Of a stretch of 36,321 bases of DNA, positions 11,055 through 35,649 are shown piece after piece. A program made the position numbers and the translations under genes. The notes below the pieces were generated by a model. It worked only from the letters and a program-made list of their open reading frames with translations. It had not been told where the DNA came from and ran no database searches. Numbering within the stretch: the stretch's first letter is position 1; every line of letters starts with the position of its first letter. Origin of the DNA: Candidatus Brocadia sp. (GTDB taxonomy: Bacteria > Planctomycetota > Brocadiia > Brocadiales > Brocadiaceae); assembly GCA_011525665.1 (NCBI GenBank), contig WYAU01000108.1, positions 1 through 36,321 on the forward strand, written 5' to 3'.

Positions 11055-12677
<1,623 letters not shown>

Positions 12678-12732
12678 TCAAACCTCCAAAAAATTTAATC
12701 AGTTAAAAAACCCCCCCAGAGACCGACCCGCG

Positions 12733-13017
12733 TCATTCAATCTTGGCCAAAATGTCGCTCTCTCTCATAACAAGGTATTCCTTGCCGTCAAGGGTAACCT
12801 CCGTCCCTGCATACTTTCCGTAAAGGACTTTGTCTCCCTTTTTTACGAGAAGTTCAGCCCTTTTGCCGCTCTCCAGCATCTTTCCATCTCCAACAGCGAC
12901 TACCTTTCCCTTCATGGGTTTTTCCTTTGCCGTATCGGGCAAAACAATTCCGCCCGGAGTTTTTTCTTCGGCTTCCATAGGCTCAATAACTACCCTGTCG
13001 TCTAACGGTCTGATCAT
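12733..13017 (-). CDS. groS: Co-chaperonin GroES
   Basis: 94 residues, normal length for the heptameric lid. Starts [13 protein letters not shown], has the mobile-loop region ([14 protein letters not shown]) that docks on GroEL, and the conserved [13 protein letters not shown] single groES serves two flanking groEL genes; it sits between them with 89 nt upstream and 58 nt downstream. GAGG upstream of ATG 13017 is a good ribosome binding site. Confidence 0.97.
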
Positions 13018-13106
13018 GTTTTCTCTTTACCTCCTCATGAAAAATAAACAATCAAAAATACGTAAATTTGCCTAAATTTCTGATACGCAACTTCCCGCCA
13101 CCGGGA

Positions 13107-15073
<1,967 letters not shown>

Positions 15074-20904: not shown

Positions 20905-21564
20905 ATGAGAGAAGCAGGAATCCTCTCAATTCAGGTTGGCCTGCCAAAGAAGCTTGGTGAAGTAGAAACGACTGATTTTTCGCGCAAATCCTGGGTGTCG
21001 GGTATTTTCAAGACCGAGGTTTGCGGCCCGGTATGGCTGGGAAAATGTAATCTCGATGGGGATGCACAGGCGGACTTGTCAGTTCACGGCGGCCCCCACA
21101 AGGCAGTCAATGTGTATCCATCCGAGCATTACCCTTACTGGAAGCAAGAATTTGCGATGCACGATATGCCTTACGGCGCCTTCGGAGAAAATTTTACGAC
21201 CCGTGGCTTGCGTGAGGATGAAGTTTGCATTGGTGACGTATTCAAGACCGGCGACGCCGTTGTCCAGGTTTCACAACCCCGTCAACCCTGCTGGAAGATA
21301 GATCGCCGATGGGGAGTTAAGGATTTCTCTCTCCGTGTGAAACAGGCGGGGAAGACCGGCTGGTATTTCCGTGTGCTCCAGGAGGGATATGTGGAGGCAG
21401 GAAATGCCATTGTCCTTCTCGAAAGGCCTTTCCCCCAGTGGACGGTTGCGGGGGCGTATTACATCAGGTGTAACCGCAAGACTGATAGTGAGGCAGCACG
21501 GGCGCTATCTCAATGTCCTGCCCTTTCGCCACGGTGGCAGGAGGATTTAAGTTCGGTGATATGA
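20905..21564 (+). CDS. MOSC domain protein, YiiM family
   Basis: 219 residues. MOSC domains carry a conserved Cys that binds molybdenum cofactor sulphur. Here DLSVHGGPHKAVNVYP, GENFTTRGL, ICIGDVF-like VCIGDVFKTG, and SQPRQPCWKID (the conserved Cys) are all present. A C-terminal helical domain follows, as in YiiM, whose relatives reduce N-hydroxylated compounds. AAGGAG lies about 12 nt before ATG 20905. Its stop is 4 nt before the ydbH start, so the two are probably cotranscribed, although the roles are not obviously linked. Confidence 0.85.
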   Translation: MREAGILSIQVGLPKKLGEVETTDFSRKSWVSGIFKTEVCGPVWLGKCNLDGDAQADLSVHGGPHKAVNVYPSEHYPYWKQEFAMHDMPYGAFGENFTTRGLREDEVCIGDVFKTGDAVVQVSQPRQPCWKIDRRWGVKDFSLRVKQAGKTGWYFRVLQEGYVEAGNAIVLLERPFPQWTVAGAYYIRCNRKTDSEAARALSQCPALSPRWQEDLSSVI

Positions 21565-21568
21565 GTAT

Positions 21569-24100
21569 ATGCATTTACGACGCGGGAAAAAAGGGGTTTT
21601 GTGTTTCATCTTTGTCGCATGCACGGTGTTTTTTCTTGTATGTGGCACATTTTTTTTCTTTCCCTTTTTCCTGGAGAAAAAACTGCTTCCACGCCTTGCA
21701 CAAGCCATCGGATTTCCCGAATCCTCCTGTGAGGTGCGCAAGTTTAGCCTGACCGGACTCGATCTGGCCTCCCTGCAACTGGGATATCCTGAAAATCACT
21801 TCCTGTCGTTCGATTCTGTCCGATTGGATTATTCCCTGTCCGGTTTGTTAAGGAAACACATGAAGAAGGTCATCGTCAGCGGCGTTGAAATCAGGGTTGC
21901 ATATAAAGATGGCCGTTTCGTAATACCCGGAATGAATATGGAAGATTTTTTCAAAGGCAACGCAGAAGCAAATTATGACAACCAGAACGATGCTCCTCGG
22001 CAATTATTACCCCTTACCTCCGGAGAACTCGAGGTCCGCAATGCCGCCATCACAATCGTCTCAGACAATTCCAGCCTGAGAATCCCCTTTGGCATGAAAG
22101 CAAAACCATTTTCATCATCGGGAAAAACAACTATTTCGGGTTATGATTTTCAGGTGTGGTTTCATCTGGATATAAAAACTCACGTTCCGGCATTGAAAAT
22201 TGCCTCCAGAATAGACATTCATGCTCGCCGCTGTTTTCCTCCGTATAAGACAGACATACGACTCAACTTCTCTGGCCTAGATATCGATTACGAGGGTTAT
22301 CGGATCATGAATTCCCCGGGCAATATCCCACTAACCATCGATATTGCCAAAAAACAGGATGCCTTTCACGCCACCTTTTCCCCTTTTTGCATTGTTTCCC
22401 CTTTTCCCGCTGAATTAACCATGGAACCGAATACCGGTTGTCACATCCGGTTTTCTCAGGAAGGGATGGAAATAGAGGGGGAATTTTTGGTGAATTTTTC
22501 CCGGGAACTCTGGAATGCTTCATCTCCCGCCGGGTTACAATTGCTCAATTCCGGGGTTTTTCCCTTGCGGTTTGCCGGTACAAAAAAGGGGAATGCCTGG
22601 CAATTTTTTTTGGACGCACCACCGAGCGGAAAAGCCCTGCAATTTCACAGACAGGTAGACACATTCAGCTTTTCCCCCCAGTCTCTTTCAATCCGGGGAA
22701 AAGGAGCGGAATCCGAGGGGGCTGTGGATTTTTCCCTGGCAATATCTGATATTACCTATATTTCAGATTCTTTCCAGGCGGGCATCAGGGATTTCAGGAT
22801 TTACGGGAATTCGTCACTGCAAAGTTCACACGTTTCCACCATGCACGCCTTTACCCAACTGTCCGGTGCCGAATTTACTGCAGGTGGTTTCTCGGCGAAA
22901 AAAATGGACGCCGTAATTCCCTTTCAATGGCCTATTCCTTTGCCGCAGGGGGAAAAGCCGGAGTATCAGGTGGAAGAAAATAGATATCTTACGGTCGGTG
23001 CCATAAAGTATCGTGGGAGGGAGCTTGGAACCATCTCTGCGGTTCCCTATCAGGCGGGAACGGGTGTTTGTTTTACCGGGCAATACAGGGATTTTTTCCC
23101 CTATTTCCACATAGACTTCACCGCAATGGCGGGAATAAGCAATGAGGGTAATGTGCTGTCTGAAATTGATTTTCAATCATCCGATTCCGGGAGCGCCGTC
23201 AATATCGATCTGGGAAAATTCTTACCCGAAATGTCAGGTATGTTTTTTGAAGGTGCTCTTGGTATCAAAGGAAAGTACCAGTCAACCGGCGGCGCAACAA
23301 CCAGCGGCGCCATTATTTCCATTCATAATTCCCGTATCGATGCCCCTGAAAAAAAGATGACGCTGACTGGCATTGATTTAGATTTTGAGATAAAGGATTT
23401 GGTGAATTTTCAGAGCGCCCCTGATCAGATTCTCAAATTTCAGCGTTTTGCCTGGGGTGATATAGAGATCAATGAGGGAGAAGTTGAATTTGAGATGGAT
23501 TCGTCATCCTTTTTTTTGAGAAAGAGTAGTTTCTCCTGGTGCGACGGATACGTGCACACGCATGGCTTACAGATAAAATACGGGAAAAGGGATATCGATA
23601 TTATCTGCATCTGCGACCGTCTTACCCTTGCAACGCTCTTAAAGCAGTTTAACTTAGCGGGCGCAGACGGAGAAGGCGCCGTGAACGGACGTATTCCCAT
23701 ACACTATAAAGGCGGAAAAATAAAACTAAACGATGGTTTCCTTTATTCTACCCCCGGCAAAGGAGGCACTCTTCGTTTCCATGATGAGACGCTTTCACCG
23801 GGGGCGCTGGTTGCGCAGCAGACGATACAACTGCAAATCGCGCAGGAAGCCCTCAAAAATTTCACGTATGACTGGGCAACGCTTTCTTTGCAAAGCGAGG
23901 GCGATGACTTACTCGTCCTGATGCAAATGAGTGGCAGGCCTGCGGGCTTAATGCCATTCGGGTTTAAAAAGGACATAGGGCTTTATAAAACAGAGGGGAC
24001 GCCAAAGGCCAATTTTCAGCAGATAGATTTTCACATAAATTTCAGACTGCCGCTGGATGCTATGTTGCAGTACAGTTCGGGAATAGGCGAATTATTGTAA
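21569..24100 (+). CDS. ydbH: YdbH-like AsmA-type inter-membrane lipid transport protein
   Basis: 843 residues. One N-terminal membrane helix (GVLCFIFVACTVFFLVCGTF) anchors a very long beta-rich body made of repeated amphipathic strands, as expected of AsmA/TamB/YdbH bridge proteins that carry phospholipid through a hydrophobic groove across the periplasm. The C-terminal region (LNDGFLYSTPGKGGTLRF, then LQSEGDDLLVLMQMSGRP) matches the YdbH-type domain once labelled dicarboxylate transport. The next two genes are YnbE-like and YdbL-like, the same set and order as in E. coli, which greatly strengthens the call. Start ATG 21569 lies 4 nt after the MOSC stop. Confidence 0.85.
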   Translation: MHLRRGKKGVLCFIFVACTVFFLVCGTFFFFPFFLEKKLLPRLAQAIGFPESSCEVRKFSLTGLDLASLQLGYPENHFLSFDSVRLDYSLSGLLRKHMKKVIVSGVEIRVAYKDGRFVIPGMNMEDFFKGNAEANYDNQNDAPRQLLPLTSGELEVRNAAITIVSDNSSLRIPFGMKAKPFSSSGKTTISGYDFQVWFHLDIKTHVPALKIASRIDIHARRCFPPYKTDIRLNFSGLDIDYEGYRIMNSPGNIPLTIDIAKKQDAFHATFSPFCIVSPFPAELTMEPNTGCHIRFSQEGMEIEGEFLVNFSRELWNASSPAGLQLLNSGVFPLRFAGTKKGNAWQFFLDAPPSGKALQFHRQVDTFSFSPQSLSIRGKGAESEGAVDFSLAISDITYISDSFQAGIRDFRIYGNSSLQSSHVSTMHAFTQLSGAEFTAGGFSAKKMDAVIPFQWPIPLPQGEKPEYQVEENRYLTVGAIKYRGRELGTISAVPYQAGTGVCFTGQYRDFFPYFHIDFTAMAGISNEGNVLSEIDFQSSDSGSAVNIDLGKFLPEMSGMFFEGALGIKGKYQSTGGATTSGAIISIHNSRIDAPEKKMTLTGIDLDFEIKDLVNFQSAPDQILKFQRFAWGDIEINEGEVEFEMDSSSFFLRKSSFSWCDGYVHTHGLQIKYGKRDIDIICICDRLTLATLLKQFNLAGADGEGAVNGRIPIHYKGGKIKLNDGFLYSTPGKGGTLRFHDETLSPGALVAQQTIQLQIAQEALKNFTYDWATLSLQSEGDDLLVLMQMSGRPAGLMPFGFKKDIGLYKTEGTPKANFQQIDFHINFRLPLDAMLQYSSGIGELL

Positions 24101-24183
24101 TGAAGGTTTCACGGATACGGACAGAAAACAAGGTTTTTCATGTGTAGAATATCCTGAACAATTTTAAAATAAGGAGAAAGAAA

Positions 24184-24405
24184 ATGAAGGGTGATTGTGG
24201 AGTTTTATGCATGATTTTTTTACTTTTTCTCACAGGATGCAAAACAGAACACAAACTGGAAGTAGATGTGAAGCCATTGCAGGTTACGATTGACGTAAAT
24301 GTTAAAATCGACCGGGACCTTGATAATTTTTTTGGCTCTTTAGATGAAAAAGCAAGACATTTTGACAGCGCAATAACCGGAGAAGCGCCGACACCCGTTC
24401 GATAG
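24184..24405 (+). CDS. ynbE: YnbE-like small lipoprotein
   Basis: 73 residues. A lipoprotein signal ends in the lipobox LTGC (Cys about residue 19). The mature part (KLEVDVKPLQVTIDVNVKID) is one or two beta strands with alternating hydrophobics, as in YnbE, which caps the C-terminal end of the YdbH bridge at the outer membrane in E. coli. Strong ribosome binding site AAGGAGAAAG. Family resemblance plus gene order support the assignment. Confidence 0.8.
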   Translation: MKGDCGVLCMIFLLFLTGCKTEHKLEVDVKPLQVTIDVNVKIDRDLDNFFGSLDEKARHFDSAITGEAPTPVR

Positions 24406-24406
24406 T

Positions 24407-24435
24407 AACGGTATCTTTCTCATGATACCGTTTTT
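24407..24435 (+). terminator. Intrinsic terminator inside the ydbH-ynbE-ydbL set
   Basis: AACGGTATC (24407-24415) pairs perfectly with GATACCGTT (24424-24432) across an 8-nt loop and runs into TTTTTC. It lies immediately after the ynbE stop and before the ydbL ribosome binding site. It would cut ydbL expression relative to ydbH/ynbE unless partly read through. Confidence 0.8.
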
Positions 24436-24453
24436 CAAAGAAAGGAAAATACG

Positions 24454-24834
24454 ATGAGAGGAAAATTTTGGGCATCTTTAGTGTTCGCAATGATTTTTGG
24501 TGGTTTTTTTATGAATACTGTAACTACGGCGGATGATTTAAATACCATAAAAGCAAGCATGGAAAAACGTCTTCCCGTTCTTGTTGATTTAAAGTCCCGA
24601 GGGATAGTCGGAGAGAACGCAGTGGGATTTCTGGAATTTATCGGTAAAAATCGCGAAAAAGACGATGTTGTTCAGGCAGAAAATCAGGACAGAACAAAGG
24701 TTTATACTGCAATCGCCCGAAAAGACCGGGTAAGCGCGGAGCAGGTTGGACGGCGCAGGGCGTTGCAGATTGCCAGCAAGGCAAAGAAAGGAGAATGGCT
24801 ACAGGATCAGAACGGAAAATGGTACCAAAAATAA
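24454..24834 (+). CDS. ydbL: YdbL-like DUF1318 periplasmic protein
   Basis: 126 residues with a signal peptide (FWASLVFAMIFGGFFMN, probable cleavage before DDLN). The body contains the DUF1318 pattern: MEKRLPVLVDLKSRGIVGEN, VVQAENQDRTKVYTAIARK and the C-terminal GEWLQDQNGKWYQK. In E. coli YdbL is a periplasmic helper of the YdbH-YnbE bridge, proposed to control YnbE assembly. AAAGGAAAA precedes ATG 24454. Confidence 0.85.
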   Translation: MRGKFWASLVFAMIFGGFFMNTVTTADDLNTIKASMEKRLPVLVDLKSRGIVGENAVGFLEFIGKNREKDDVVQAENQDRTKVYTAIARKDRVSAEQVGRRRALQIASKAKKGEWLQDQNGKWYQK

Positions 24835-29797: not shown

Positions 29798-29819
29798 TAT
29801 ACCCATAGTTTTGAATTCA

Positions 29820-29863
29820 GGCGATGGAGTTCGCCCAATTGCTATGTGATAGCTGATAACTCC
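29820..29863 (+). ncRNA. Fluoride riboswitch aptamer (crcB motif), copy 1
   Basis: The order and conserved letters match the crcB aptamer. GGCG (29820-29823) pairs with CGCC (29832-29835) around AUG-GAGUU. A linker leads to the second hairpin GCTAT/ATAGC (29841-29853), then TGAT and AACTCC (29858-29863), which pairs exactly with GGAGTT (29826-29831) to form the pseudoknot. The same layout is found in the Thermotoga petrophila aptamer. The pseudoknot strand is also the left arm of terminator 1, as in known fluoride ON switches: fluoride stabilises the pseudoknot and prevents termination. It controls the 66-codon gene and the dynamin-like GTPase gene. Confidence 0.93.
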
Positions 29864-29896
29864 TATTGAAGGCAGATACTTCGATAGGAGTTTTTC
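29859..29896 (+). terminator. Riboswitch terminator 1, copy 1
   Basis: ACTCCTATTGAAG (29859-29871) pairs with CTTCGATAGGAGT (29879-29891), 7-nt loop, then TTTTTC. Its left arm shares ACTCC with the aptamer pseudoknot, so it can form only when the aptamer is not fluoride-bound. Confidence 0.92.
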
Positions 29897-30201: not shown

Positions 30202-30307
30202 GCAGTAAAGTGTAAAAATCATATAGAGAAAGGCAGAAGGTGGACAATAAATTTTCCAGACTTGAAAGATATTACACTCGATGCTTTTATTTTTGTGGAG
30301 GTGTTCC

Positions 30308-32110
30308 ATGTTAGAAGAATTTATAAGGCATAAAACAGAAATACTGGCCATTATCGAAAATGTCGAGACCCTGACAAAGGATGACATGGCAGCCGTGGAT
30401 AATCGGTTGCTCACGGTCAAGGAACAGTTGATAGCAAATTGTTTCAATCTGGTGATTTTAGGACAATTTAAAAGAGGTAAGACAACCCTCATTAATAGCC
30501 TGATCGGCAAGGAAATACTCCCTTCTTCCGTAGTACCACTGACGTCTATTGTGACAATCCTGAGGTATGGAGAAGAGGTTAGCTGTTTGATCTCTATGGA
30601 GGACGGCAGTGAAAAAAAGATTTACATAGAGGAACTTCCTGATTATGTAACGGAGAAGGGGAATCCCAAAAATATACGGGGCGTACGATGCGCACGCATC
30701 GGGTATCCATCCCCTTTCCTTGAAAAAGGGATACTGCTGGTAGACACGCCGGGAGTGGGGTCCACCTTCCTGCACAATACAGAAACGACCTATGAATTTT
30801 TAGACCACCTGGATGCTGCATTGTTCCTCATGAGCGCCGACGTCCCCATCTCACAGGTGGAAAAGGAACTCCTCGATACCATCAAGGGCTCTACCCAGAA
30901 GATATTTTTTGTGTTGAACAAGATCGATAATCTGACCCTGAAAGAGATTGAAGAAATAGCCGCCTTCAACAGACAGGTGTTGGAGGAGATGGGGTTTACC
31001 GTTCAGGAAATCTGGCCTGTCTCTGCCAGGGAAGCACTAAAGGCAAAAACAACGAACAATGACCTTCAACTTTCACAGAGTGGCCTTTTGACCCTGGAAG
31101 ATGCATTAGGGAGTTTTCTCTCTTTAGAAAAAGGAAAAATCGTCCTCAATACCACCATATCCAAGACAAAGCGGGTCATCTCCCGGATGCTCTCCCAGAT
31201 AACCATTGAGAAAAAGACCATGGAAGCCTCCGGGGAAGAGTTAGAAGACAAGATTAACACCTTTCATCAGCTTGTAGCGAACCTGAAGCAGGACAGAGAA
31301 GACATGAAATGTCTCCTCAAGGGCGAATCAGACAAGCTGTGTTTTAAGGTGGAAGAGATGTTAAAGATTTTGGAAGAAAAGGAGATACCGAGAGTAAAGC
31401 AGTGCCTTACGGATTTCTATGGAAAAAATCCCGATCTCAATCCCACCGTCTTAAGGGACGGAATGCAAAAGGTTATCAAGGATGAGATCGTTAAAGGATT
31501 CGATGCATTCAGAAAGGATGCCGAGAAGGTAATCTCAAATACACTCCAGGAAACCTTTAATCGTTTTACAAGACGTTCCAACAATATCATCACCGAGTTT
31601 AAAACAGCTGCCGAGATACTCTTTGAGGTATCCATGGAACAATGTGAATTTTCCGTTGAACTGGCCAGGGATACCGGTTTTTATTACATGGTTCAGGAAT
31701 ATACCGCCCCCACCGAAGAAGAGGTCAAGTCCATCCTGCGCACCTTCCTGCCGAAATCCATGAGCAGTAAGATGGTCTTGAACGAGATGCTGGAACGGGT
31801 CTCCTCCGATGTGGGCAGGAATTGCGGCAGGATACGTTCTGACCTCACAGCAAGGATCAGCAAAACCATCGGCCATTACTCCAAACAGATGAAAGATCTC
31901 GGGAGCGATCTTATTGCCCAGATAGAACAGGCCATACAAAAGGGACAGGAAAGACGAAGGGCGGGTAGCGAGTCGGTACGGCTTGAACTGGAATTATTAG
32001 CAAACAAGACGAAAACCCTGGAAGAGTACAAAGAAAATCTGGAGAAGGTATGGAATGCGGTAAATCTCATAGATATAAAACCAGAACGAATAAAGATGGC
32101 AATGATGTAA
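30308..32110 (+). CDS. Bacterial dynamin-like GTPase
   Basis: About 600 residues from ATG 30308, chosen because GGAGG lies 7-11 nt upstream (the open frame begins at 30281). GTPase domain: P-loop GQFKRGKTTL (about residues 52-61), switch threonine in VPLTSIVT, G3 LLVDTPGVGS, G4 VLNKIDNL. The remaining ~350 residues are predicted long helices with coiled-coil character (KKTMEASGEELEDKINTF and others), the stalk/effector part of dynamin-family proteins. No clear transmembrane helix. Dynamin-like proteins self-assemble on membranes to remodel, fuse or protect them. Here the gene lies under a fluoride riboswitch with two terminators, so I infer expression under fluoride stress. The exact subfamily cannot be read. 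Confidence 0.9.
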   Translation: MLEEFIRHKTEILAIIENVETLTKDDMAAVDNRLLTVKEQLIANCFNLVILGQFKRGKTTLINSLIGKEILPSSVVPLTSIVTILRYGEEVSCLISMEDGSEKKIYIEELPDYVTEKGNPKNIRGVRCARIGYPSPFLEKGILLVDTPGVGSTFLHNTETTYEFLDHLDAALFLMSADVPISQVEKELLDTIKGSTQKIFFVLNKIDNLTLKEIEEIAAFNRQVLEEMGFTVQEIWPVSAREALKAKTTNNDLQLSQSGLLTLEDALGSFLSLEKGKIVLNTTISKTKRVISRMLSQITIEKKTMEASGEELEDKINTFHQLVANLKQDREDMKCLLKGESDKLCFKVEEMLKILEEKEIPRVKQCLTDFYGKNPDLNPTVLRDGMQKVIKDEIVKGFDAFRKDAEKVISNTLQETFNRFTRRSNNIITEFKTAAEILFEVSMEQCEFSVELARDTGFYYMVQEYTAPTEEEVKSILRTFLPKSMSSKMVLNEMLERVSSDVGRNCGRIRSDLTARISKTIGHYSKQMKDLGSDLIAQIEQAIQKGQERRRAGSESVRLELELLANKTKTLEEYKENLEKVWNAVNLIDIKPERIKMAMM

Positions 32111-32185
32111 GTAAAATCGAGCATCAAATTAGAGCATGGATTCTCATAATGTAAGTAAATAAACATTTTTTTCTATTTTTATTCC

Positions 32186-32229
32186 GGCGATGGAGTTCGC
32201 CAAACTGCTACATTGTAGCTGATAACTCC
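32186..32229 (+). ncRNA. Fluoride riboswitch aptamer (crcB motif), copy 2
   Basis: GGCG (32186-32189) pairs with CGCC (32198-32201), then AAACT, hairpin GCTAC/GTAGC (32207-32219), TGAT, and AACTCC (32224-32229) pairing with GGAGTT (32192-32197). The second hairpin differs from copy 1 yet still pairs, supporting the structure. No consensus promoter is evident just upstream, so it may be transcribed by read-through from the GTPase gene 75 nt before it. Confidence 0.92.
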
Positions 32230-32262
32230 TGTTGAAGTTGAGCTTCGATAGGAGTTTTTTTT
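32225..32262 (+). terminator. Riboswitch terminator 1, copy 2
   Basis: ACTCCTGTTGAAG (32225-32237) pairs with CTTCGATAGGAGT (32243-32255), 5-nt loop, then a T8 run. Same overlap with the pseudoknot strand as in copy 1. Confidence 0.9.
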
Positions 32263-32306: not shown

Positions 32307-32380
32307 GTTTTATCGTTCATCTTCAATTTGGAAATGTAGCTTGCAAAAACAGCACCTTGTTTGATTTACAGGAGGTACGA

Positions 32381-33187
32381 ATGGAAAGAATTATTGAAAT
32401 TGTTGAGAAAAAGACCTTAGAAATTTCCCGAAAAGATTTGGAGGATAGGATAAACACATTTTATCATCTCGCTGCAAACCTGAAACAAGGTAGAGAGGAT
32501 ATTACGTATCTGCTCGAAGAAGAATTGAACACGTTGTGTCTGAAGGCGGGTGAGATGATAAAAATTTTTGAAGAAAAAGAGATATCCAGAATAGGGAAGT
32601 GTCTCCATGATGTTTTTAAAGAGGATGCGGATACCAATCCGACGGTTTTGAGAGATAAGTTACAGAAAGTTATCGAGAAAGAAATCGTCAAAGGATTTGA
32701 TATGTTTAAACAGGATACACAAAAAGTAATCTCAAATAATACCGGGGGGGCTATTAACCGTTTTCTGAGGTGTTTCACCGATAATATCTGTGAGTTTAAA
32801 ACGGCCGTAGAGATCCTCTTTGAGGTACCTATGGGCCAGTTTGAATATTTCGTGAAACCGACCAGAAAAACTAGTTTTTCTGGCATGGCTCATGAGTATT
32901 CGGTTGCACCTGATGGAGAGTTCAAGTTCGTTTTACGCGCCTCTCTTCCAAAGTCGATCAGCATGAAGCTGGTTTTATATGAAATGATAGATAGGATGAC
33001 CTCTGATGTAAATCGGAATTGCAAAGGGATACCGACGTTGAAAGAATTGTTGATACTATCATCAACGAATCCAAAACGGGGAGCATTGGCGATGGAAAGA
33101 TATTTGTTTTTGATGTGGAAAAGGCCTATCGTATTCGTACAAATGAGTCCGGCGAGGCTGCAATTTAAATTGTTTGATGCAATTTAG
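32381..33187 (+). CDS. Headless dynamin-like fragment, chimeric, probably a pseudogene
   Basis: About 268 codons from ATG 32381, with GGAGG upstream. It begins [14 protein letters not shown]: the opening resembles the 66-residue protein, then from EKKT onward it follows the GTPase's helical region ([20 protein letters not shown] against NTFHQLVANLKQDREDMKCL; ILFEVPM against ILFEVSM; SLPKSIS against FLPKSMS). The whole GTPase domain is absent. Similarity ends at SDVNRNC; from about 33030 the sequence is the 3' end of a PII gene read in the wrong frame, so the last ~50 residues are accidental. It cannot bind GTP; it might still bind the parent protein if expressed (inference). Preceded by its own riboswitch copy. 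Confidence 0.75.
33034..33168 (+). pseudogene. 3' fragment of a PII nitrogen-regulator gene (glnB/glnK type)
   Basis: In the frame starting at 33034 the sequence reads DVERIVDTI, then [30 protein letters not shown] and a TAA at 33166-33168. TG-x-IGDGKIFV and RIRT-x-E-x-G are the PII C-terminal signature. The N-terminal two thirds, including the T-loop, are missing and replaced by the GTPase fragment in another frame. No start codon or ribosome binding site serves this frame, so it is a remnant. Confidence 0.85.
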
Positions 33188-33808: not shown

Positions 33809-34723
33809 ATGTCTGCTGAAGGGAATGAAGGTGCAAACAATCAGGAATATACTGCACCAGTTATTGAGATTGATACCTACGAACCGTCTGAAATGACTGA
33901 TCGGGTAGGACGGGTGAGCATTTCAAAAACAGACCTTGGTACTTTAACGATGCTTGGCCTCAGTATCCTCGCCGGAGTCTTCATTTCACTTGGAGCACAG
34001 CTCTCCATCCTGGTAACACATACAGCTACCTCAAGTTATGGTTTAAATCAACTCATCGGCGGGGTAGCTTTTACCTTGGCGATGATTTTAATCGTAATCA
34101 CCGGCGCCGAACTTTTTGCTGGAAACCCGCTTGTTGCAATGTCTTTTATGGCCAGGAAAATTACTGGCAGAGCCCTTGTCAGAAATCTGATTATTGTACT
34201 TACCGGTAATTTTATTGGTGCATTAACCGTAGTTTTGTGGATATACAATTCTGAGCAATGGATGGTGAACAATTACTTACTTGGCGCCAAAATTGTCCTT
34301 ACCGCAAACGACAAGGTAAACACCTCATTTGGTGCAGCCTTTGCGCGGGGAGTGATTGGCAATGCCCTGATTTGTCTGGGTGTCTGGCTGTGCTATTGTG
34401 GCAGGAGTAATATGGATAAAATATTGGCGTTGCTCTGGCCAACATCCTGTCTCATCGCCTGCGGATTCGAACACTGTGTTGTCAATATGTGGCTTATTCC
34501 CATGGGGCTTATTCTGAAAGGCCACCGTGCAATACTGGCTACCGCTGAAACGGTACATGGCGGAAAGTTAGACCTTTCCAATCTCACCTTTTTTAAAGGC
34601 TTTTTGATAGATAACCTGTGTCCCGTCGTACTTGGAAACTTGTTTGGCTGTATTGTACTGGTTGCAGGTGCGTATTGGTTTGTGTTTTTACGCCTTTCAA
34701 GGAATGATAAAGGAGTTGTGTAA
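33809..34723 (+). CDS. Formate/nitrite transporter (FNT) family channel, copy 1
   Basis: 304 residues. A polar N-terminal extension of ~45 residues, then six membrane helices with FNT motifs: GAELFAGN, TGNFIGAL, ARGVIGNALICLGVWL and the central filter histidine in GFEHCVVNMW. FNT pentamers move small monovalent anions such as formate, nitrite or hydrosulphide. In an anammox-like organism nitrite is the likely cargo (inference). The motif here is ELFAGN, where copy 2 has ELFTGN. Strong ribosome binding site AAAGGAGG. Copy 2 follows after 2 nt, so they are one operon. A TATACT at about 33750 has no clean -35. Confidence 0.92.
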   Translation: MSAEGNEGANNQEYTAPVIEIDTYEPSEMTDRVGRVSISKTDLGTLTMLGLSILAGVFISLGAQLSILVTHTATSSYGLNQLIGGVAFTLAMILIVITGAELFAGNPLVAMSFMARKITGRALVRNLIIVLTGNFIGALTVVLWIYNSEQWMVNNYLLGAKIVLTANDKVNTSFGAAFARGVIGNALICLGVWLCYCGRSNMDKILALLWPTSCLIACGFEHCVVNMWLIPMGLILKGHRAILATAETVHGGKLDLSNLTFFKGFLIDNLCPVVLGNLFGCIVLVAGAYWFVFLRLSRNDKGVV

Positions 34724-34725
34724 AA

Positions 34726-35649
34726 ATGTCAAAAAATAACATCTCAAGACCTGCGAAAGATACAAATACCGATGCATATACGCCCCTGCAGACCGTTGCC
34801 ATAATTGAAAATAAGGCCGTAGTAAGGGCCAGATTGCGGGTTACACAAACTTTTATATTAAGTATGTTAGCCGGAATCTTTGTGGCCATGGGTGCCCAAT
34901 TTGCCACTTTTGTGACCAGCGACTCCGCCCTGCACTTTGGAGTTACCTCCCTTATTACCGGCATTGTGTTCTCTCTTGGACTCATACTGGTTGAAGTTGC
35001 CGGGGCCGAACTTTTTACAGGCAATAACCTCAACATTGTGGGCTATGTCAGCAAAAGGATTACAACGCGTGAGTTAGTTAAGATATGGACTATCGTGTAT
35101 ATTGGTAATTTTATTGGCGGCCTCATGATGGTCTGCTGGATGTATATGGCACACCAGTGGGAATTTTCCCACTATGCTACAGGTGCAAAGGCACTGCTTA
35201 TTACCCACAAAAAGGTGAATCTGTCTTTTAAAGCCGCACTGGTGAGGGGCGTGCTTTGCAACGCACTGGTGTGTCTTAATGTATGGTTATGCTACAGCAG
35301 TAGAAGCGTGGCAGACAAGGTCCTTTCAGTTCTCTTCCCCATTGGTGGTTTTGTTGCCAGCGGGTTTGAACACTGTGTTGCCAACATGTATTTTATTCCC
35401 ACGGGCTTGATGTTACGAAAAAATCAGGACGTCATTGCTGCCGCTGAAAAAATGGCAGGCAAACCATTAGACCTTTCTTTCCTTACATGGAAGGGATTTT
35501 TGGTAAACAACCTCTTCCCCGTTACCATGGGAAATTTCATTGGAGGTGTTATTCTGGTTGGTATCGTGTTCTGGTTTATTTACCTGCGACCACGTATCAG
35601 TTATTTATCACTTGAAATAAAACCAGATTTTCCCCAAGACAAAAAGTAA
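34726..35649 (+). CDS. Formate/nitrite transporter (FNT) family channel, copy 2
   Basis: 307 residues, same architecture as copy 1: polar N-terminal extension, GAELFTGNN, IGNFIGGL, VRGVLCNALVCLNVWL and filter histidine in GFEHCVANMY. Ribosome binding site AAGGAG inside the end of copy 1. The pair diverged throughout, so they are old tandem paralogues and may form mixed or separately tuned channels (inference). Confidence 0.92.
   Translation: MSKNNISRPAKDTNTDAYTPLQTVAIIENKAVVRARLRVTQTFILSMLAGIFVAMGAQFATFVTSDSALHFGVTSLITGIVFSLGLILVEVAGAELFTGNNLNIVGYVSKRITTRELVKIWTIVYIGNFIGGLMMVCWMYMAHQWEFSHYATGAKALLITHKKVNLSFKAALVRGVLCNALVCLNVWLCYSSRSVADKVLSVLFPIGGFVASGFEHCVANMYFIPTGLMLRKNQDVIAAAEKMAGKPLDLSFLTWKGFLVNNLFPVTMGNFIGGVILVGIVFWFIYLRPRISYLSLEIKPDFPQDKK

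What the first reader, a model, noticed from the sequence alone, without database searches (positions are those of the whole stretch)
21569..24834. Complete ydbH-ynbE-ydbL lipid-bridge set outside its best-studied hosts
All three parts are recognisable by domain, lipobox and signal peptide, in E. coli order. If the host is a planctomycete, this supports a conventional outer membrane with phospholipid traffic from the inner membrane, relevant to the debate about the planctomycete cell plan and to ladderane lipid distribution.
Basis: partly seen in the sequence, partly recalled or inferred. Interest (0 to 1): 0.55.

Follow-up and report, generated by a model that had tools for sequence, protein, structure and literature searches.

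The report
Outer-membrane lipid bridge in anammox bacteria
A three-gene set that in E. coli forms a bridge carrying membrane lipids from the inner to the outer membrane is also present in the planctomycete Brocadia, where the better-known E. coli stand-ins were not recognised; it is a known kind of system in an unstudied host.

Summary
Window 21569-24100, 24184-24405 and 24454-24834 encode a YdbH homolog (PF11739, 67 bits, cut-off 26), a 73-aa YnbE-type lipoprotein and a YdbL (DUF1318, 79 bits, cut-off 27), in E. coli order. Pfam misses the window YnbE; a profile of 24 planctomycete copies recovers E. coli YnbE, and hhalign agrees at 89.7%. The host shares a genus code with Candidatus Brocadia species. 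The set is widespread: YnbE and YdbL both follow ydbH in 75 of 80 named relatives. Best mechanism: an inner-membrane-anchored beta-groove, capped at the outer membrane by YnbE and helped by YdbL, carries phospholipid. That is inferred by homology and fold, not tested. The outer-membrane argument is consistent (LptD 30/33, Omp85 32/33 Brocadiaceae) but dates from 2012; the ladderane link is untested. Beyond the finding: TamB was found in 0 of 33 Brocadiaceae and YhdP above cut-off in 0 of 33; two YdbH types about 25% identical occur in one family; sister families carry a long DUF1318 lipoprotein instead, possibly a merged YnbE-YdbL, for which the sequence test was negative.

The parts
21569..24100 (+). 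ydbH homolog, 843 aa: N-terminal helix (9-29, low confidence) then a long all-beta AsmA-like groove
   Evidence: PF11739 67.4 bits; AF2 model mean pLDDT 74, 53 strands (list, counted); Foldseek top PDB rows LPD-3 and Vps13 lipid-bridge proteins, low TM-scores
23246..23935 (+). Family-defining stretch of YdbH (residues 560-789), overlapping the best conserved part
   Evidence: PF11739 match 624-850 of 893; in 19 Brocadiaceae rows the mean share of the commonest residue is 0.67-0.71 at 601-843 against 0.48-0.56 at 101-600
24184..24405 (+). ynbE-type lipoprotein, 73 aa; lipobox cysteine Cys19, strand-like motif VTIDVNVKID
   Evidence: alignment of 24 copies; profile recovers E. coli YnbE; hhalign 89.7%; no Pfam hit for the window copy itself
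24454..24834 (+). ydbL homolog, 126 aa, N-terminal hydrophobic signal-like stretch (by reading) and DUF1318 domain
   Evidence: PF07027 79.3 bits; profile matches PDB 28oj 'Probable chaperone-like protein YdbL' E 6e-19; AF2 mean pLDDT 87
20905..21564 (+). MOSC-domain protein ending 4 nt before ydbH; a neighbour, not shown to be part of the system
   Evidence: PF03473 128.6 bits; no tblastn match at E 1e-10 in the 16 related named loci tested, where window YdbH matched 16 of 16

Best explanation
The three genes encode a YdbH-YnbE-YdbL intermembrane bridge. YdbH is held in the inner membrane by its N-terminal helix; its long hydrophobic beta-groove crosses the periplasm; its conserved C-terminal edge pairs by beta-strand addition with the outer-membrane lipoprotein YnbE; YdbL acts as a periplasmic helper in assembling YnbE. 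Phospholipids move along the groove to the inner leaflet of the outer membrane. Shown here: the sequence families, gene order, conservation, an AsmA-like predicted fold, and one face of the strands being more hydrophobic. Inferred from E. coli: the YnbE contact, the YdbL role and transport itself. In Brocadiaceae this set may matter more than in E. coli, since TamB and an above-cut-off YhdP were not recognised.
For: Family matches above curated cut-offs for YdbH and YdbL. YnbE by profile and hhalign. The block stays together: YnbE found in 77 and YdbL in 75 of 80 named loci; of 20 Brocadiaceae loci, YnbE in 19 and YdbL in 18, and for one exception (G049) both sit on another contig. The AF2 model of window YdbH has Foldseek hits to the LPD-3 bridge complex (E 4.9e-4, prob 0.60, TM 0.10-0.14) and Vps13 fragments (prob 0.99, TM by target 0.30-0.36); VIA-align Vps13 Z 7.7, TamAB hybrid-barrel chain B Z 7.3. 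Strand hydrophobic alternation 2.3 against 1.49 (sd 0.2), reached by 0 of 2000 shuffles. LptD, Omp85 and MlaD/MCE in the same genome. The YdbH-YnbE contact is reported for E. coli (PMC12977461 passage; PMC12045153 passage).
Against: No experiment in any planctomycete was seen. The window YnbE is not called by Pfam. hhalign of the planctomycete YdbHs with E. coli YdbH gives only 5.7% probability, though at the expected C-terminal place, and the home-made profile does not list E. coli YdbH at E 1e-3. Apolipoprotein B and outer-membrane barrels score higher than Vps13 in VIA-align, so the fold match is not specific. Residues 1-53 of the model, with the supposed membrane helix, have pLDDT under 50. 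Whether Brocadia YnbE reaches the outer membrane is not tested. Other AsmA-like genes exist (PF05170 in 31 of 33), so 'main route' is not shown.
Confidence: 0.82

Rival explanations
1. The set is an AsmA-type bridge, but for another cargo or purpose (for example lipoprotein, hopanoid or ladderane handling, or outer-membrane protein assembly), not bulk phospholipid supply.
For: AsmA-like folds can serve other roles; GspN, an AsmA-like fold, is reported in transport of lipoproteins to the cell surface (PMC12802150, title and passages). Brocadiaceae have further AsmA proteins that could carry the bulk.
Against: YdbH with YnbE is the arrangement tied to phospholipid homeostasis in E. coli (passages), and it is kept here with YdbL.
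Confidence: 0.12
2. The large protein belongs to an unrelated beta-rich family, and the small genes are chance neighbours (the finder's own refutation).
For: PF11739 covers only residues 560-789 of 843; the window YnbE has no Pfam call.
Against: 67.4 bits against a 26.3 cut-off; all 23 members of alignment A1 match PF11739 at E 0.01 or better, though the 22 others were fetched by PF11739 in the first place; block kept in 75 of 80 loci that were fetched by YdbH alone.
Confidence: 0.02
3. A degraded or non-expressed relic acquired by transfer.
For: Two very different YdbH types occur in one family, which suggests replacement.
Against: No stops inside the matched stretches listed; AGGAG a few bases before the ynbE start (read from sequence); conserved C-terminus.
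Confidence: 0.03

Closest known systems
E. coli K-12 ydbH-ynbE-ydbL (b1381-b1383)
   Same: Same three families, same order and strand
   Different: Only the C-terminal part of YdbH scores in PF11739; genes do not overlap; YnbE is longer (73 against 61 aa); TamB and above-cut-off YhdP not recognised in the host family
TamB and YhdP (AsmA superfamily bridges)
   Same: Predicted long beta-structure after an N-terminal helix; recalled: both are inner-membrane anchored bridges
   Different: Sequence family is YdbH; no TamB or YhdP hit in the window protein at E 1
Vps13 / LPD-3 bridge-like lipid transfer proteins
   Same: Among the best Foldseek rows for the model
   Different: Fold resemblance only, low TM-scores; sequence identity 8-14%
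Long DUF1318 lipoprotein beside an AsmA-like gene in sister planctomycete families
   Same: DUF1318 domain next to a large AsmA-like gene
   Different: One lipoprotein and no separate YnbE in the 8 loci examined; in the 5 of these genomes where the large gene was scanned it does not match PF11739

Membership tests
YdbH (PF11739) | Score over the curated cut-off | tested here: met
   67.4 bits vs 26.3
YdbH (PF11739) | N-terminal membrane anchor and long periplasmic beta-groove | tested here: inconclusive
   AF2 model: helix 9-29 then mostly strands; mean pLDDT 74, but residues 1-53 under 50; location not tested
YdbH (PF11739) | Full-length match to the family profile (not required by Pfam) | tested here: not met
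   Profile 624-850 of 893 only; E. coli YdbH matches 1-892
YnbE (PF13617) | Score over the curated Pfam cut-off | tested here: not met
   No hit for the window copy; best relative 20 bits vs 25.8
YnbE (PF13617) | Short lipoprotein with lipobox directly after ydbH, homologous to E. coli YnbE | tested here: met
   GC of the lipobox invariant in 24 of 24; profile finds E. coli YnbE E 1.6e-4; hhalign 89.7%
YnbE (PF13617) | Outer-membrane location and contact with YdbH | not testable with these tools
   -
YdbL (PF07027 DUF1318) | Score over the curated cut-off | tested here: met
   79.3 bits vs 27; PDB 28oj YdbL E 6e-19 with the profile of 26 rows
E. coli-type YdbH-YnbE-YdbL bridge | Three adjacent genes in this order | tested here: met
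E. coli-type YdbH-YnbE-YdbL bridge | Supports outer-membrane phospholipid supply | not testable with these tools
   needs genetics or biochemistry

The most novel reading that the evidence does not exclude
In Brocadiaceae, which show no recognisable TamB and no above-cut-off YhdP, the YdbH-YnbE-YdbL set is a principal route of lipid (possibly including ladderane lipids) to the outer membrane. In sister planctomycete families the same job is done by a two-gene form in which YnbE and YdbL are merged into one long DUF1318 lipoprotein, a natural fusion showing that YdbL acts on YnbE.
Probability: 0.18. Interest if true: 0.6.

Novelty: new member of a known kind. Interest (0 to 1): 0.36.

Why it matters
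It extends a recently described E. coli lipid bridge, with its lipoprotein cap and helper, to Brocadiaceae (anammox planctomycetes by recall) and to Lentisphaerota and Desulfobacterota relatives. It gives a host family in which YdbH is the only one of the three jointly essential E. coli bridges that profiles recognise above cut-off, so the question whether YdbH can be a main route becomes testable. If the long DUF1318 lipoproteins are merged YnbE-YdbL, they would be natural evidence for what YdbL does. It adds little to the question whether planctomycetes have an outer membrane, which rests on earlier work.

Tried and rejected
Two origins of YdbH in Brocadiaceae: the quick tree puts Brocadia/Kuenenia with Lentisphaerota and Kiritimatiellota (SH-aLRT 99) and Jettenia/Loosdrechtia with Desulfobulbaceae and others (93), but the AU test does not reject one Brocadiaceae clade (p 0.502), so the tree is left undecided. 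83 rows went in; near-duplicates and short or doubtful rows (28 locus ids named in the script, not all of them with a hit) were left out. The identity contrast still needs explaining.

Patchy distribution as plain absence: PF11739 hits 31 of 392 planctomycete genomes, but DUF1318 hits 49 of 392, and neighbours of DUF1318 include AsmA-like genes that PF11739 misses; so the gaps may be partly a sensitivity matter.

YnbE-YdbL fusion by sequence: hhalign of 14 mature N-termini against YnbE gave 3.9% and 1.4% (one row, L008, was cropped at a wrong place) and 2.0% and 1.7% with the crop corrected. It stays a lead.

Conservation claim: the invariant columns listed could only fall in the C-terminus, because row L007 is a 249-aa fragment; I recomputed without it, and the C-terminal bias stands.

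Host naming by hydrazine synthase: PF18582 rang nowhere, controls included, so uninformative. 16S rRNA: none found in the assembly (9 of 14 control genomes rang). First genome-contig scan with the window YdbH alone: 16 pattern matches, no relative.

Conserved gene neighbourhood: seven window neighbours gave no tblastn match (E 1e-10) in 16 related named loci with up to 5 kb flanks; as control, window YdbH matched 16 and YdbL 13 of the 16. Promoter and terminator counts are near the shuffled means. Solved structures by YdbH profile: only weak lectin matches. Row L007 of A3 runs into N and was dropped from the YdbL profile.
Full report
OBSERVATION. The 843-aa protein at 21569-24100 matches PF11739 YdbH-like at 67.4 bits (cut-off 26.3), residues 560-789; a weak DUF748 match (25.5 bits, cut-off 50) covers its N-terminus. 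The 126-aa protein at 24454-24834 matches DUF1318/YdbL at 79.3 bits (cut-off 27). The 73-aa protein at 24184-24405 has no Pfam match, and NCBIfam names none of the three above cut-off. E. coli K-12 shows the same order, ydbH-ynbE-ydbL.

YNBE. Twenty-four copies (19 Brocadiaceae and 5 other planctomycetes) from the same position keep M1, G18, C19, N39, L46 and F50 without exception. Four of 24 touch PF13617 YnbE-like, best E 6e-4, below the cut-off (20 against 25.8 bits). A profile from the 24 picks E. coli YnbE in its own locus at E 1.6e-4; hhalign against E. coli YnbE gives 89.7%, E 1.9e-6 over 35 columns. I take it as YnbE, failing only the Pfam threshold.

HOST. No 16S was found. The genome shares a genus code with genomes whose YdbH loci are 100% identical to Candidatus Brocadia pituitae (L011/L035), B. 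carolinensis (L012/L036), B. sapporoensis (L017/L040) and Brocadia WS118 (L008/L047). The family code also holds genomes matching Kuenenia hertensis, Jettenia ecosi and Loosdrechtia aerotolerans records at 100%. I call this family Brocadiaceae. That these are anammox bacteria with ladderane lipids is recalled, not tested; the hydrazine synthase search was uninformative.

SPREAD. PF11739 hits 20 of 24 genomes of the host's family, 0 of 12 of other families of the order, 0 of 2 others of the class, and 11 of 354 others of the phylum. A scan of named genomes with an alignment of 20 family members found 115 relatives, of which the best 80 were kept: Brocadiaceae, Lentisphaerota, Kiritimatiellota, Desulfobacterota and some that the NCBI names map to Myxococcota, Pseudomonadota or Tharpellota. 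Near-duplicates are among the 80. With home-made profiles, YnbE follows in 77 of 80 and YdbL in 75 of 80; in L034, L040, L058 and L076 the contig ends within about 0.5 kb of ydbH, and in L062 768 bases are left without a YnbE. In the 20 Brocadiaceae loci, YnbE was found in 19 and YdbL in 18; the two exceptions are shortened loci (L017, L025), and for L017 (G049) both genes are on another contig. Five of the 11 other planctomycete hits also have both (L006, L009, L015, L019, L024); L026-L030 do not in the stretch held, and the match in G111 came without a locus. For G124 (L028) and G111, YnbE- and YdbL-like frames lie on other contigs (L137, L145).

FOLD. An AlphaFold2 model of window YdbH (20-row alignment) has mean pLDDT 74, pTM 0.61, a helix at 9-29 in a stretch of pLDDT under 50, and 53 strands (count). 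Foldseek ranks the LPD-3 lipid-bridge complex first (E 4.9e-4, prob 0.60, TM 0.10-0.14) and a Vps13 fragment second (prob 0.99, TM by target 0.30) among solved structures; only one row has E under 0.001. VIA-align gives Vps13 Z 7.7 (172 residues, 5.1 A) and TamAB hybrid-barrel chain B Z 7.3, but apolipoprotein B (12.3) and porins (about 10) score higher, so the fold is a long beta-structure, not proof of a bridge. Alternate residues in the 31 strands of 8 or more differ in hydrophobicity by 2.3 against 1.49 (sd 0.2) in shuffles, 0 of 2000 as high; a membrane barrel could do the same. YdbL models well (pLDDT 87), and its profile matches PDB 28oj, deposited as 'Probable chaperone-like protein YdbL', E 6e-19.

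ENVELOPE PARTS. In 33 Brocadiaceae genomes: LptD 30, Omp85 32, MlaD/MCE 33, AsmA (PF05170) 31 (25 over cut-off), TamB 0, YhdP over cut-off 0 (13 with weaker matches). The TamB model rang in 6 of 14 control genomes, so its absence is meaningful at that sensitivity, not proof; in a sister family one AsmA-like protein (L130) matches TamB at 25.4 bits, over the cut-off of 22.4. The window's own genome has one LptD, one Omp85, two MCE and three AsmA matches. YdbH is therefore the only one of the three jointly essential E. coli bridges (PMC8593681, passages) that profiles recognise here above cut-off, next to other AsmA-like genes.

TWO TYPES OF YDBH. Among six Brocadiaceae genomes compared, BamA is 64-79% identical (a 693-aa piece for G239), yet YdbH falls in two groups: window, G239, B. 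pituitae and G070 are 41-60% identical to each other; L. aerotolerans and G153 are 66% identical; across groups 24-27%. G239 and L. aerotolerans (G088) share a genus code but have different types. Replacement by transfer, or old paralogs with losses, would explain it; the tree does not decide.

A VARIANT NEXT DOOR. DUF1318 hits 49 of 392 genomes of the phylum and 32 of 62 of the order. In the order, 23 of 33 Brocadiaceae have it; in the 22 loci examined YnbE was found in 21, the other (L154) being cut short. Nine genomes of other families have it; in the 8 loci examined it is a 200-214-aa lipoprotein beginning C-AVITVN[VI]YFPTEA and no YnbE is found near. For five of these genomes (L126-L130) I looked at the gene before it: 807-1009 aa, scored by the YdbH profile at E 1.7e-10 to 0.013; Pfam gives DUF748 or AsmA in three (only L128 over a cut-off), TamB in L130, neither in L126, and PF11739 in none of them. 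Their alignment aligns with the planctomycete YdbH profile at 97.8% (99.0% with four more from other families), from near the N-terminus to about column 700-720 of 864. Cysteine, strand, helix, then DUF1318 looks like YnbE joined to YdbL, but the sequence test was negative (1.4-3.9%). I report it as a lead.

MECHANISM AND PRIOR WORK. In E. coli, YdbH interacts with the outer-membrane lipoprotein YnbE (PMC12977461, passage), proposed to be by strand addition at the YdbH C-terminus (PMC12045153, passage); a 2024 review places YnbE with YdbH in phospholipid transport (PMC11784454, passages). The key paper (Kumar 2024) was not held, so I know it only through these and from recall. The strongest conservation in Brocadiaceae YdbH lies at residues 601-843, where the YnbE contact is expected. 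For outer membranes in planctomycetes, Speth et al. 2012 found LptD and BamA in all published planctomycete genomes (PMC3422733, abstract and one results section). My searches for YdbH with planctomycetes (3 papers), DUF1318 (1), AsmA with anammox (2), and a six-term query (26, of which 20 were listed) gave no listing whose title or abstract start describes this set in planctomycetes; I read passages of only one of the three papers, and a paper outside the library may exist.

VERDICT. The finding is real and correctly named; it is a new host for a known kind of system, and the wider claim about the planctomycete cell plan is not new. Interest comes from the unrecognised TamB/YhdP, the two YdbH types and the long DUF1318 lipoproteins.

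Noticed in passing
L126-L130 and L172, L173, L175-L180 (other families of the order); also L131, L132, L134-L136, L139-L141, L144: Long DUF1318 lipoproteins with a strand-helix-like segment after the lipobox; in L126-L130, L132, L134 and L139 a large gene with weak AsmA-type or YdbH-profile matches lies beside it; possible merged YnbE-YdbL.
   Followed up: partly
L133, L138, L142: DUF1318 proteins without a lipobox (by reading) beside genes of about 1400 aa in other planctomycetes; only the L133 one was scanned, with a weak DUF748 match.
   Followed up: no
L002 (G239) against L021 (G088): Same genus code but YdbH only about 26% identical while BamA is 74% identical; suggests replacement of the gene.
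   Followed up: partly
window 29811-29872 and 32177-32238: Two fluoride riboswitches 2.4 kb apart, one upstream of a dynamin-like GTPase ORF (30281-32110) and one upstream of an ORF that repeats part of it (32357-33187); ORF naming by reading.
   Followed up: no
window 33809-35649: Two tandem ORFs that read like formate/nitrite channels (FocA type), by reading only.
   Followed up: no
window 11055-14771: Two consecutive GroEL-like ORFs (by reading).
   Followed up: no
33 Brocadiaceae genomes: No TamB match in any, with 6 of 14 controls ringing; YhdP matches only below cut-off, in 13 of 33.
   Followed up: partly
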